In this document: in pieces, positions 6,215 through 37,015 of the stretch | Layout of the letters: every line of letters begins with the position of its first letter | How positions within the stretch are numbered: position 1 is the stretch's first letter | From: Streptomyces tardus | Lineage (GTDB): Bacteria; Actinomycetota; Actinomycetes; Streptomycetales; Streptomycetaceae | Direction: 5' to 3' | Assembly (NCBI RefSeq): GCF_018101125.2 | Contig: NZ_JAELVF020000001.1 | Span: 993,095-1,057,094 of the forward strand | DNA: 64,000 nucleotides | The notes under the pieces: model-generated | The model's input: only the letters and a program-made list of their open reading frames with translations | Databases searched by the model: none | Told to the model about the DNA's origin: nothing | Translations under genes and position numbers: made by a program

Positions 6215-6326
6215 GTTCTCTCTCCTTGTTCTCTGCACCGGCCGTATCAGGTACCGGTGTCAGGCCGGCTGAGCGGTCGCCCAGCCGAGTTCACAGCCCC
6301 TCGCGGGGCTCGTGAGCAGTACCGGC

Positions 6327-30800: not shown

Positions 30801-31109
30801 TCAGAGCTTGATCTCGATGTCGACGCCGGCCGGAAGGTCCAGACGCATCAGCGAGTCAACGGTCTTGGGAGTCGGGTCGAGGATGTCGATGAGGCGCTTG
30901 TGGGTGCGCATCTCGAAGTGCTCGCGCGCGTCCTTGTACTTGTGCGGCGACTTGATGACGCAGTACACGTTCTTCTCTGTGGGCAGCGGCACCGGGCCTG
31001 CGACCGACGCACCAGTACGAGTCACCGTCTCGACGATCTTCTTCGCCGAGTTGTCGATGACCTCGTGGTCGTAGGCCTTGAGCCGGATGCGGATCTTCTG
31101 TCCCGCCAT
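30801..31109 (-). CDS. rpsJ: 30S ribosomal protein S10
   Basis: 102 residues from [20 protein letters not shown] at 31109; S10 also forms the NusE part of antitermination complexes with NusB. First gene of the S10 operon. The leader upstream carries a 24-base hairpin element shared with rpsL. The longer frame to 31334 is rejected. Confidence 0.99.
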
Positions 31110-31171
31110 GGCTACTTCGTAGTCCTGTCTCTCGTGAAAGCTCTGGAACCCGGTGGAACTCCACCCCTGTC

Positions 31172-31195
31172 CGACCCACGCGGTCGGGCGTGTCG
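31172..31195 (-). promoter_or_regulatory. rpsJ leader hairpin element, shared with rpsL
   Basis: This 24-base sequence matches 36807-36830 upstream of rpsL at 23 of 24 positions. On the transcript CCGACC and GGTCGG can pair across a GCGTG loop. It sits 63-86 bases before the rpsJ ATG. Such sharing between two ribosomal operons suggests a common leader control or processing element. Confidence 0.6.
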
Positions 31196-31425: not shown

Positions 31426-31456
31426 AGTGTGCCATAGCGGGCACCGGGAGGGCCAA
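31426..31456 (-). promoter_or_regulatory. Possible rpsJ (S10 operon) promoter
   Basis: Minus-strand CACACT (31426-31431) with TTGGCC (31451-31456) 19 bases upstream. The spacing is long and the -10 imperfect, so this is tentative. It would give a leader of about 310 bases containing the shared hairpin. The interval 31110-31508 holds no gene. Confidence 0.35.
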
Positions 31457-31508: not shown

Positions 31509-32204
31509 TCAAATCTCTTGCGCTCGTGCGGAGTTGAGCCGCCAGTCCCGGGCCCCGTCGAGGGTGGCCGCGTACACCGTGCGGGCGATACGCGCGCCCC
31601 AGCGGCTGCGCGGACCGGCGAACGGCTCGGCCGTCCCGCCGGCAGCCGGCACCGGCGCGACCACGCACACCGCGTCCGACGGAGTCCCCGAGCAGTCCGC
31701 ACCTGCGTCCAGCAGCGCCTGCACCTTGGCCTCGGTGGCGGTCGCGACGGCGTTCACCAGAGCCGCATCACTCAAAGGAACGGCGACCACGAGCACGGTG
31801 TTGACGGTCCCCGCCGCAGGCGGCCCCGGCAGCCCCGGTGGCCGTTCTGCGGCCCAGCCGCGGACCCCGAGTCCCGTGGTCACCACGGTACGCACCCCCG
31901 CTTCCTCGGCCTCCGTGAACCGCGCCACCTGCGCAGCGGTCATCAGGCCTGCTCCGGCCCCCTCCAGCCCCGCGGTGCGGGCGAGTTCGGCGAGGTGCGC
32001 GGCGGGGTCGGTACGGCAGTAGCCGGGCGGCACCTGCGCGTTGAGCACCCAGCCCCGCTCCCCCAGACCGCCGCCCAGCACGGCGGAGGAACACACGCGC
32101 TGCCCGGGGCCCAGCCGCCACACCAATTGCGGAAGACTCACCCCGGCCTCCTCCCGCACCGTCAACTCCGGTGCGCAGAGGCCGACTTCGGGGAACACGT
32201 CCAT
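31509..32204 (-). CDS. CbiZ-like adenosylcobinamide amidohydrolase family protein
   Basis: 231 residues from the ATG at 32204 ([20 protein letters not shown]). It resembles the CbiZ family, which in archaea cleaves adenosylcobinamide to cobyric acid for corrinoid salvage: the stretch [21 protein letters not shown], then [17 protein letters not shown] and [20 protein letters not shown] fit. In actinobacteria such proteins are often encoded next to ribosomal genes and their activity is less certain. It is isolated between tuf and rpsJ on the same strand. Confidence 0.7.
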
Positions 32205-32243
32205 CCGGGGCTCCGGTCTCTCGGTGGAACCGGCCTCTCGGCC

Positions 32244-32265
32244 CGGGCCCGCGCGAAAGGGCCCG
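32244..32265 (-). terminator. Short terminator-like hairpin downstream of tuf
   Basis: cgggccc (32244-32250) and gggcccg (32259-32265) pair around an 8-base loop, 65 bp after the tuf stop codon on the leftward transcript. Confidence 0.5.
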
Positions 32266-32329
32266 TACGACCGAGGTCGCACAGGCCCTTCACGTGGTAC
32301 TGGTACTGCGAGCCCTTACGGGCCGGGGG

Positions 32330-33523
32330 TCACTTGGTGATCTTGGTGACCTGGCCGGCGCCGACGGTCCGGCCACCCTCACGGATGGCGAACTTGAGGC
32401 CCTCCTCCATGGCGACCGGCTGGATCAGCTGGACGGACATGGTGGTGTTGTCGCCCGGCATGACCATCTCGGTGCCCTCGGGGAGGGTCACGACGCCGGT
32501 CACGTCGGTGGTACGGAAGTAGAACTGCGGGCGGTAGTTGTTGAAGAAGGGGGTGTGACGACCACCCTCGTCCTTCGACAGGATGTACGCCTGCGCCTCG
32601 AACTCCGTGTGCGGGGTGACGGTGCCCGGCTTGATGATGACCTGGCCGCGCTCGACGTCCTCGCGCTTGATGCCGCGGAGGAGCAGACCGACGTTCTCAC
32701 CGGCCTGGCCCTCGTCCAGCAGCTTCCGGAACATCTCGATGCCGGTCACCGTGGTGGTGGTCTTCTCGGTCTTGATGCCGATGATGTCGACAGTCTCGTT
32801 GACCTTGAGGATGCCACGCTCGATACGGCCGGTGACGACCGTACCGCGACCGGTGATCGTGAAGACGTCCTCGATCGGCATGAGGAACGGCTTGTCGACC
32901 TCGCGCTCCGGCTGCGGGATGGCCTCGTCCACGGCCTTCATCAGGTCGAGAACGCTCTGGCCCCACTCGCCGTCGCCCTCGAGGGCCTTGAGCGCCGAGA
33001 CCTTGACGACCGGCAGGTCGTCGCCCGGGAACTCGTACTCGGTGAGGAGTTCACGGACCTCGAGCTCGACGAGCTCCATGATCTCCTCGTCGTCCACCAT
33101 GTCGGCCTTGTTCAGGGCGACAACGATGTACGGAACGCCGACCTGGCGGGCCAGGAGCACGTGCTCCTTGGTCTGCGGCATCGGGCCGTCGGTGGCGGCG
33201 ACCACGAGGATGGCGCCGTCCATCTGAGCGGCACCGGTGATCATGTTCTTGATGTAGTCCGCGTGACCCGGGCAGTCGACGTGGGCGTAGTGACGGCTCT
33301 CCGTCTGGTACTCGACGTGCGCGATGGAGATCGTGATACCGCGCTGGCGCTCCTCGGGCGCCTTGTCGATGTTCTCGAAGGCCGAGGCCTCGTTGATGTC
33401 GGGGTAGGCGTCGTGCAGCACCTTGGTAATGGCCGCCGTGAGGGTGGTCTTACCGTGGTCGATGTGACCGATGGTGCCGATGTTGACGTGCGGCTTAGTC
33501 CGCTCGAACTTCGCCTTCGCCAC
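32330..33523 (-). CDS. tuf: Elongation factor Tu
   Basis: 397 residues from a GTG. It delivers aminoacyl-tRNA to the ribosome. G1 [10 protein letters not shown]3 DCPGHADY and G4 NKADMVD are intact; domains 2 and 3 are canonical. Streptomyces often carry a second divergent tuf elsewhere; this is the housekeeping copy of the str operon, 220 bp after fusA. Confidence 0.99.
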
Positions 33524-36379: not shown

Positions 36380-36751
36380 TTACTTCTCCTTCTTGGCGCC
36401 GTAGCGGCTGCGAGCCTGCTTGCGGTTCTTGACGCCCTGGGTGTCGAGGGAACCACGGATGATCTTGTAGCGAACACCCGGCAGGTCCTTCACACGGCCA
36501 CCGCGCACGAGCACGATGGAGTGCTCCTGCAGGTTGTGGCCCTCACCCGGAATGTAGGCAGTGACCTCGATGCCGCTGCTGAGCTTCACACGGGCGACCT
36601 TGCGGAGCGCCGAGTTCGGCTTCTTCGGGGTGGTGGTGAAGACACGCGTGCAGACGCCACGGCGCTGCGGCGAACCGTCTAGCGCGGGCGTCTTGTTCTT
36701 CTCGACCTTGTCCTGCCGGCCCTTGCGGACCAGCTGCTGGATCGTAGGCAC
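36380..36751 (-). CDS. rpsL: 30S ribosomal protein S12
   Basis: 123 residues from a GTG at 36751 ([20 protein letters not shown]). The two streptomycin-resistance hot spots are wild type: the lysines of [12 protein letters not shown] and the lysine of [12 protein letters not shown]. First gene of rpsL-rpsG-fusA-tuf. Upstream are the shared leader hairpin and a strong promoter. Confidence 0.99.
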
Positions 36752-36806
36752 AGTCTCTCCGGTTTCTGTGTGCCGTATCGGTAAATCTAACCTGGGCCAC
36801 CTCACC

Positions 36807-36830
36807 GACCCACGCGGTCGGGTGTGTCGA
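36807..36830 (-). promoter_or_regulatory. rpsL leader hairpin element, shared with rpsJ
   Basis: Matches 31172-31195 in the rpsJ leader at 23 of 24 positions, and lies 56-79 bases before the rpsL start, nearly the same distance as in rpsJ. It forms a CCGACC/GGTCGG stem on the transcript. Confidence 0.6.
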
Positions 36831-36986: not shown

Positions 36987-37015
36987 AGCGTACCGACCGC
37001 GCAGGCTCCGGTCAA
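36987..37015 (-). promoter_or_regulatory. str operon promoter
   Basis: Minus-strand TTGACC (37010-37015) and TACGCT (36987-36992) with a 17-base spacer, the best housekeeping promoter in the window. The predicted leader to rpsL is about 230 bases. The interval 36752-37207 otherwise has no gene. Confidence 0.75.

What the first reader, a model, noticed from the sequence alone, without database searches (positions are those of the whole stretch)
31172..31195. A 24-base hairpin element shared by the rpsJ and rpsL leaders
23 of 24 bases are identical between two operons 5.6 kb apart, at nearly the same distance from the start codon (63 and 56 bases), and fold into a CCGACC/GGTCGG stem. Shared leaders suggest coordinated control of the S10 and str operons, through a common protein or antitermination (S10 is NusE).
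Basis: partly seen in the sequence, partly recalled or inferred. Interest (0 to 1): 0.5.

Follow-up and report, generated by a model that had tools for sequence, protein, structure and literature searches.

The report
WhiA binding site heading ribosomal operons
The short repeated sequence before two ribosomal gene clusters is real and widely conserved among actinomycetes, but it is best read as a landing site on DNA for the known regulator WhiA rather than as an RNA hairpin, which suggests that WhiA helps control ribosome production.

Summary
A 25-base element (24/25 identical) lies before rpsJ (31171-31195, -) and rpsL (36805-36829, -); the genome has only these two copies. In 80 class genomes a matrix search found it in 91 of 136 scored rpsJ/rpsL upstream regions (54/57 rpsL, 37/79 rpsJ; 72 of 80 genomes). 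rpsJ has its own copy mostly when it is separated from tuf, so the element tends to head each transcription unit.

The hairpin reading fails: no compensatory change in 93 distinct elements, and the 3' arm decays or is lost. The near-invariant part, GACAC[A/G]CC, matches the published WhiA core (GAYACRCY). WhiA ChIP-seq in Streptomyces venezuelae peaks 75 bp before rpsJ, inside the element's position in other Streptomyces. All 29 class genomes tested have whiA. Predicted promoters put the site downstream of the transcription start, as reported for Mollicutes, though further downstream.

Best explanation: a DNA site for WhiA at both operons. The rpsJ site is in effect known. The rpsL twin, the full class-wide site and the one-per-unit pattern appear new. 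Mechanism and sign of regulation are open.

The parts
31171..31195 (-). rpsJ copy of the element, CGACACGCCCGACCGCGTGGGTCGG; inferred WhiA site
   Evidence: conserved in 37 of 79 scored rpsJ upstreams of the class
31187..31194 (-). GACACGCC, matching the published WhiA core GAYACRCY
   Evidence: sequence; core from PMC11701221 and GACAC from PMC3781837
31171..31181 (-).
   Evidence: column conservation; auxiliary-motif idea from PMC11701221; inference
31426..31456 (-). predicted rpsJ promoter TTGGCC-N19-CACACT, upstream of the element
   Evidence: promoter upstream in 21 of 37 class rpsJ regions with the element
30801..31109 (-). rpsJ (ribosomal protein S10), first gene of the S10 unit
36805..36829 (-). 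rpsL copy of the element, CGACACACCCGACCGCGTGGGTCGG; inferred WhiA site
   Evidence: conserved in 54 of 57 scored rpsL upstreams of the class
36821..36828 (-). GACACACC, matching the published WhiA core GAYACRCY
   Evidence: sequence
36987..37015 (-). predicted rpsL promoter TTGACC-N17-TACGCT, upstream of the element
   Evidence: promoter upstream in 41 of 54 class rpsL regions with the element
36380..36751 (-). rpsL (ribosomal protein S12), first gene of the str unit
32330..33523 (-). tuf (EF-Tu), last gene of the str unit; its distance to rpsJ largely predicts whether rpsJ has its own element

Best explanation
The element is a long, one-directional DNA binding site for WhiA, a transcription factor made of a helix-turn-helix domain joined to a LAGLIDADG homing-endonuclease-like domain. 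The helix-turn-helix would read C-GACAC-[A/G]CC. The LAGLIDADG domain would contact the conserved downstream half (CGA-CC-[G/T]CG-[G/T]GGGTCGG). The site lies between the promoter and the start codon of the first gene of each ribosomal-protein transcription unit, one at rpsL and one at rpsJ where the two units are separate. WhiA bound there would tune transcription of both units together, perhaps in response to ATP as reported in Mycoplasma. Shown here: the conserved sequence, its placement at rpsJ and rpsL only, the predicted promoters upstream of it, the one-copy-per-unit tendency, and whiA in every class genome tested. Taken from papers: the core motif, and WhiA binding in vivo at rpsJ in S. 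venezuelae. Inferred: binding at rpsL, the role of the downstream half, how a site this far inside the leader acts, and the sign of the effect.
For: Of 107 collected elements, 105 have GACAC and 103 the full GAYACRCY at the fixed position (they were collected with a pattern that demands most of these letters, but the matrix, which fixes no letter, finds exactly the same 91 class sites). PMC11701221 gives GAYACRCY as the WhiA core before rpsJ operons of most species examined that keep whiA, Actinobacteria among the groups surveyed, plus a clade-specific motif downstream, with the site downstream of the transcription start in Mollicutes. PMC3781837 Table 1 lists rpsJ as a WhiA ChIP-seq target in S. 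venezuelae, 75 bp from the start codon, significant in vegetative and mid-sporulation samples. In S. narbonensis, as in this window, the element spans 62-86 nt before rpsJ. whiA is found in 29 of 29 class genomes tested. The four genus-g188 genomes lack the element genome-wide at up to 2 mismatches of a shortened pattern and their WhiA scores 288-293 bits against 324-369 in the other 25 class genomes. The hairpin does not covary and its 3' arm is dispensable. The same core reappears upstream of the -35 box at rrn and rpsJ promoters of family f79 and, as GATACGCCCGG, at rpsL promoters of three genomes of other classes: behaviour of a DNA site.
Against: No binding was tested here. rpsL is not named in the main text of either WhiA paper, the main text of the WhiA/WhiB ChIP-seq paper PMC4850268 has no 'ribosomal' or 'rps', and supplementary tables could not be read. 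In Mycoplasma the authors conclude that WhiA blocks initiation, from a site 22-40 nt after the start; placed about 1 kb downstream it had only a very weak effect. Here the site mostly lies 100-200 nt after the predicted -10 box, so that mechanism may not carry over. All sites at these leaders share one orientation, whereas the ChIP-seq study found no fixed orientation at WhiA targets. The sign conflicts: rpsJ expression is reported down in a whiA mutant of S. venezuelae, while Mycoplasma WhiA represses. Other reported translation targets, infA and rpsH, have no GACAC within 320 nt upstream in this window. In other classes of the phylum whiA does not predict a core at rpsJ/rpsL (6 of 65 upstreams with whiA, 1 of 49 without; Fisher p = 0.24). 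The g188 correlation is a single evolutionary event. A site inside the leader fits an RNA element equally well by position.
Confidence: 0.82

Rival explanations
1. An RNA leader element: a ribosomal protein from these operons binds the hairpin or the single-stranded part of the mRNA leader and represses its own operon.
For: Predicted promoters place it in the leader in 41 of 54 rpsL and 21 of 37 rpsJ regions; one orientation only; ribosomal operons are classic targets (general knowledge).
Against: No compensatory change in 93 distinct elements for three candidate stems; 69 of 107 leaders form neither of two local hairpins with mean pair probability above 0.5; no Rfam family; no significant linear 16S/23S likeness; WhiA core and ChIP peak at the spot.
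Confidence: 0.08
2. A Nus-type antitermination signal recruiting NusB-S10 or another elongation factor to these long operons.
For: It tends to head long transcription units, one copy each; the product of rpsJ is NusE (general knowledge).
Against: The full element was not seen upstream of the 30 16S rRNA loci read, 7 of which had under 300 nt of upstream sequence. The partial look-alikes are the f79 copies, which lie before the promoter, TTGACACGCCCC inside a -35 box of one of the two window-genome rRNA loci, and CGACACCCCGGG 1.2 kb upstream in L139.
Confidence: 0.04
3. A DNA site for another actinomycete regulator that happens to contain GACACRCC.
For: In Streptomyces-genus genomes only the two full sites are found, whereas the WhiA regulon of S. 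venezuelae has about 240 units, so the extended half is not general to WhiA.
Against: WhiA ChIP peak on the rpsJ site and the independently described rpsJ-operon site in Mollicutes.
Confidence: 0.06

Closest known systems
WhiA site before the rpsJ operon of Mollicutes (Mycoplasma gallisepticum; PMC11701221)
   Same: Core GAYACRCY, a second conserved half downstream, position between transcription start and rpsJ, same operon.
   Different: The downstream half here is [G/T]CG[G/T]GGGTCGG, not GTTGT; the site lies further from the promoter (mostly 100-200 nt after the predicted -10 box, against 22-40 nt after the mapped start); a second copy sits at rpsL.
WhiA target rpsJ in Streptomyces venezuelae (ChIP-seq, PMC3781837 Table 1)
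   Same: Same gene and genus; peak 75 bp before the start codon, inside the element's position (62-86) in S. narbonensis and in this window.
   Different: The paper reports only GACAC as consensus, found no further over-represented letters across targets, and its main text does not name rpsL.
Predicted ribosomal leaders of Actinobacteria in Rfam, e.g. RF03132 L17 leader (present in this window at 6233-6287)
   Same: Conserved element in the leader of a ribosomal-protein gene.
   Different: Rfam families are models of sequence plus RNA fold; this element shows no covariation and matches no Rfam family.

Membership tests
WhiA binding site | core GAYACRCY (GACAC in Streptomyces) | tested here: met
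   103 of 107 (GACAC in 105 of 107); the collection pattern favours these letters, but the free matrix recovers the same 91 class sites
WhiA binding site | a whiA gene in the same genome | tested here: met
   29 of 29 class genomes; own genome G000:C2:4452859-4453761, E 1.1e-108
WhiA binding site | binding by WhiA at this place | not testable with these tools
   rpsJ: reported by ChIP-seq in S. venezuelae; rpsL: no report seen in the main texts
WhiA binding site at r-protein operons | second, clade-specific motif downstream of the core | tested here: met
   element positions 15-25 conserved, though altered or lost in the rpsL copies of family f3; that it is a WhiA contact is inferred
WhiA binding site at r-protein operons | site downstream of the transcription start | tested here: met
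   predicted promoters only, with patterns chosen after inspecting: 41/54 rpsL, 21/37 rpsJ upstream of the element; 0/54 and 0/37 between element and start codon
WhiA binding site at r-protein operons | repression of the operon | not testable with these tools
   opposite sign suggested in S. venezuelae
Ribosomal-protein leader RNA | conserved covarying secondary structure | tested here: not met
   0 pairs with changes on both sides in three candidate stems; three inner pairs of the third stem never vary and so are silent
Ribosomal-protein leader RNA | match to a described Rfam family | tested here: not met
   (the lax threshold, covered the rpsJ side only)
Ribosomal-protein leader RNA | mimicry of the protein's rRNA site | tested here: inconclusive
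   no significant linear likeness to 16S or 23S; structural mimicry not tested
Nus-type antitermination site | same element in rRNA leaders | tested here: not met
   full element absent upstream of 30 16S loci, 7 with under 300 nt upstream

The most novel reading that the evidence does not exclude
WhiA is, across the class Actinomycetes, the shared DNA-level controller of both the str (rpsL) and S10 (rpsJ) ribosomal-protein units through one dedicated bipartite site per transcription unit. Control of ribosome supply, not sporulation, would then be its ancestral role, also in lineages such as mycobacteria and Arthrobacter and in family f71 with genomes as small as 1.2 Mb. In family f79 the same core is also placed upstream of the promoters of rRNA operons and rpsJ.
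Probability: 0.5. Interest if true: 0.65.

Novelty: new member of a known kind. Interest (0 to 1): 0.45.

Why it matters
[quoted passage not shown] A conserved site at the head of both major ribosomal-protein units, usually one per unit and present at each when the units are apart, points to control of ribosome supply as a conserved role and gives a simple place to test this. It also offers, for these two targets, the kind of extra sequence specificity that the ChIP-seq authors said must exist beyond GACAC.

Tried and rejected
Upstream complement to the core as an alternative fold: mean duplex score 16.8 against 15.6 in mononucleotide shuffles, highest in a few related groups; not pursued. rRNA mimicry: none significant. 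Conserved small upstream ORF: variable positions do not follow codon third positions (judged by eye).

DNA activator at a fixed distance from a downstream -10 box: it looked right for Streptomyces rpsL (TAGCTT 13 nt after the element), but TANNNT boxes are scarce downstream elsewhere while near-consensus promoters lie upstream. I held the RNA-leader reading as best until the literature lead.

Core in other classes as a general WhiA signature: not supported (6 of 65 with whiA, 1 of 49 without; p = 0.24; 68 of the 80 genomes chosen were fetched, the rest having too little sequence before rpsJ, a fragmentary rpsJ or none). Weak matches of the sequence model outside the class (20 genomes): I checked 11 loci from 10 of them (L218-L223, L231, L234-L237), plus two extra weak hits of class genome G254 (L232, L233); none was at S10 or S12.

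Full report
OBSERVATION. On the minus strand the window carries CGACACGCCCGACCGCGTGGGTCGG at 31171-31195 before rpsJ (start 31109) and CGACACACCCGACCGCGTGGGTCGG at 36805-36829 before rpsL (start 36751). They differ at one of 25 positions. With up to 3 mismatches, a 24-mer finds only these two in the window, with none in 100 shuffles. The held genome (6.16 Mb, 10 contigs) has only these two copies. By DNA likeness the nearest named loci to the window's rpsJ and rpsL regions are Streptomyces.

CONSERVATION. A phylum scan of 197 genomes with up to 3 mismatches hit 19. Of its 28 matches, 27 lie before S10 or S12; one (L003) does not. I then took upstream regions of rpsJ (80) and rpsL (58) from 80 class genomes without reference to the element. 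A weight matrix made from the first hits finds the element in 91 of the 136 regions long enough to score: 37 of 79 rpsJ and 54 of 57 rpsL. The lowest accepted score is 20.4 bits and the next is 8.2; the highest control score (shuffles and reverse strands) was 17.4. 72 of 80 genomes have at least one copy. Of the eight without, four are g188 genomes of family f79 and four have contigs that end before rpsL. Conservation has sharp edges: about 28 bases (GnG + element), then background.

SPECIFICITY. A sequence-only model scanned over 246 phylum genomes hits 24 of the 25 listed class genomes with E 8.4e-5 or better (the miss, G261, is in g188). Twenty genomes of other classes gave weak hits (best E 7e-4); I read 11 loci from 10 of them, none at S10 or S12. 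Four weak class hits (G049, G093, G262, G270) and one (G297), all in family f3, turned out to be rpsL leaders. Family f3 is unnamed; its nearest named loci are Mycolicibacterium and Mycobacterium. The 80 loci it held, from Streptomyces to Mycolicibacterium, Arthrobacter, Cutibacterium and Demequina, are all before S10 (58) or S12 (22), same strand. One genome of another class (G154) has a variant before rpsL.

ONE COPY PER TRANSCRIPTION UNIT. Where tuf ends within 330 nt before rpsJ, rpsJ lacks the element in 37 of 41 genomes; in 35 of those 37 rpsL could be read and had it. Where tuf is further or not in the fetched stretch, rpsJ has it in 33 of 37, the four exceptions all being g188 (L076 and L101 left out because the contig ends; Fisher p = 4e-13). 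The 330-nt cut was chosen after seeing the distances, four genomes with short gaps (187-303 nt) do have a copy, and related genomes are not independent, so the p-value overstates the case. The pattern is: a fused cluster usually has one element at rpsL, a split cluster one at each head. Within a genome the two copies are no more alike than copies of different genomes (22.4 against 22.1 of 25; 19 genomes).

POSITION. Near-consensus promoters lie upstream of the element in 41 of 54 rpsL and 21 of 37 rpsJ regions. Shuffles give 1.6-1.9%, the reverse strand 1 of 54 and 0 of 37, and none lies between element and start codon. The promoter patterns were written after inspecting the same regions. In the window they are 36987-37015 and 31426-31456. 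The element therefore lies in the transcribed leader by prediction, mostly 100-200 nt after the -10 box (range 27-205) and 28-228 nt before the start codon. No transcript ends were measured.

NOT A CONSERVED HAIRPIN. Two other stems do no better. The 5' part outside the stem is more conserved than the 3' arm. In the rpsL copies of six f3 genomes (the five above and G038) CGACAC[A/G]CCCG and CGGG-like letters stay, while GGTCGG is lost or altered. No Rfam family matches (the lax search covered the rpsJ side only) and there is no significant linear rRNA likeness.

WHAT IT IS. The near-invariant GACAC[A/G]CC is the published WhiA core. For PMC11701221 I read the abstract, passages, section 3.8 and the first part of the discussion. 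It reports that WhiA of Mycoplasma gallisepticum binds GAYACRCY before the rpsJ operon and represses it; that this core occurs before rpsJ in most species examined that keep whiA, Actinobacteria being among the groups surveyed; that some clades have a further motif downstream; and that in Mollicutes the site lies 22-40 nt downstream of the transcription start. It also reports that repression acts on initiation and that a site about 1 kb downstream had only a very weak effect, which does not favour a site deep in a leader. PMC3781837 (passages) reports WhiA ChIP-seq in S. venezuelae. Table 1 lists rpsJ at 75 bp from the start codon, with infA, efp, rpsH and rpsA; the text says expression of these targets is down in a whiA mutant, and that determinants beyond GACAC must exist. 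In S. narbonensis, which I recall as a close relative of S. venezuelae, and in this window the element occupies 62-86 nt before rpsJ.

WHIA GENE. All 29 class genomes tested have one whiA. The four g188 genomes, which lack the element, have lower-scoring WhiA (288-293 bits) than the other 25 (324-369); this is one evolutionary event and only suggestive. In other classes whiA was found in 47 of 80 genomes tested, but the core is not generally present at rpsJ/rpsL. The WhiA of genome G023, same genus as the window, has the three WhiA Pfam domains and matches chains 8dy7_I and 8dy9_I of the Protein Data Bank at E about 1e-197.

DNA OR RNA. In family f79 (unnamed; nearest named loci of two of the three members compared are Leifsonia) CGACACGCCCGGG sits directly upstream of the -35 box at the rpsJ promoter. 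Close versions occur in 4 of the 5 f79 16S loci with 500 nt or more upstream, about one helical turn further from the -10 box by hand count. G254 and G269 keep both the promoter copy and the leader copy at rpsJ. Three genomes of other classes have GATACGCCCGG 11-12 nt before a TTGACA-N17/18-TANNNT promoter at rpsL. A sequence used both before and after promoters behaves as a DNA site. Against this, orientation is constant at the leaders, which ChIP-seq did not find at WhiA targets in general.

MECHANISM. My reading: WhiA sits on DNA in the leader of each unit, its helix-turn-helix on GACAC[A/G]CC and its LAGLIDADG part on the downstream half, and changes initiation or early elongation. Repression with relief by ATP is the Mycoplasma model; activation is what the Streptomyces mutant suggests. 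I leave the sign open.

NOVELTY. The rpsJ site is in effect known from the two papers. I saw no mention of rpsL: 'rpsl' has zero hits in the main text of both, and the sequence strings gave no relevant paper (the one hit is unrelated); supplements were not readable. Six other papers were seen as passages only; in the passages shown, none describes this element. New here, as far as these searches go: the rpsL copy, the class-wide 25-base form, the one-per-unit pattern and the f79 promoter copies.

Noticed in passing
L113, L138, L133, L129, L182, L183 (rrn); L188, L178, L179, L096, L105, L238 (rpsJ); L172 (ABC-F-like gene, named by eye): In family f79 the WhiA-like CGACACGCCCGGG (or 11-12 letters of it) lies just upstream of promoters of rRNA operons, rpsJ and an ABC-transporter-ATPase-like gene: a possible WhiA-dependent rRNA promoter class. 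One of five rrn loci with enough upstream sequence (L130) has a degenerate form.
   Followed up: partly
L285, L275, L287 (genomes G012, G027, G146, other classes): GATACGCCCGG followed 11-12 nt later by a TTGACA-N17/18-TANNNT promoter before rpsL.
   Followed up: partly
window 36784-36789 (-): Streptomyces rpsL leaders conserve CCAGGTTAG[C/A]TT[C/T]ACC with a TANNNT box 13-15 nt after the element, a possible second promoter specific to the genus.
   Followed up: partly
window 6233-6287 (-): Rfam RF03132 L17-Actino-Proteobacteria ribosomal leader, 69.3 bits.
   Followed up: no
window 31509-32282 (-): A 257-codon open frame lies between tuf and the rpsJ promoter; not identified.
   Followed up: no
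window upstream of infA (9021) and rpsH (start taken as 23998): No GACAC on either strand within 320 nt, although both genes are WhiA ChIP-seq targets in S. venezuelae.
   Followed up: partly
L046 (G212), rpsL leader: A second core copy, CGACACGCCCGGGCGTTGAAA, lies upstream of the full element next to a -35-like TTGAAA.
   Followed up: no
class rpsL/rpsJ leaders between element and start codon: CAGCAGGT/AACAGCG-like words are over-represented (e.g. CAGGTCA in 10 of 91 against 0.2 expected in shuffles), partly from related families.
   Followed up: no
L120 (window genome, 16S locus), about 545 nt before the 16S gene: TTGACACGCCCC overlaps a -35 box (TTGACA-N17-TAGTGT), a partial look-alike of the core at an rRNA promoter; the other 16S locus read (L140) lacks it.
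   Followed up: no
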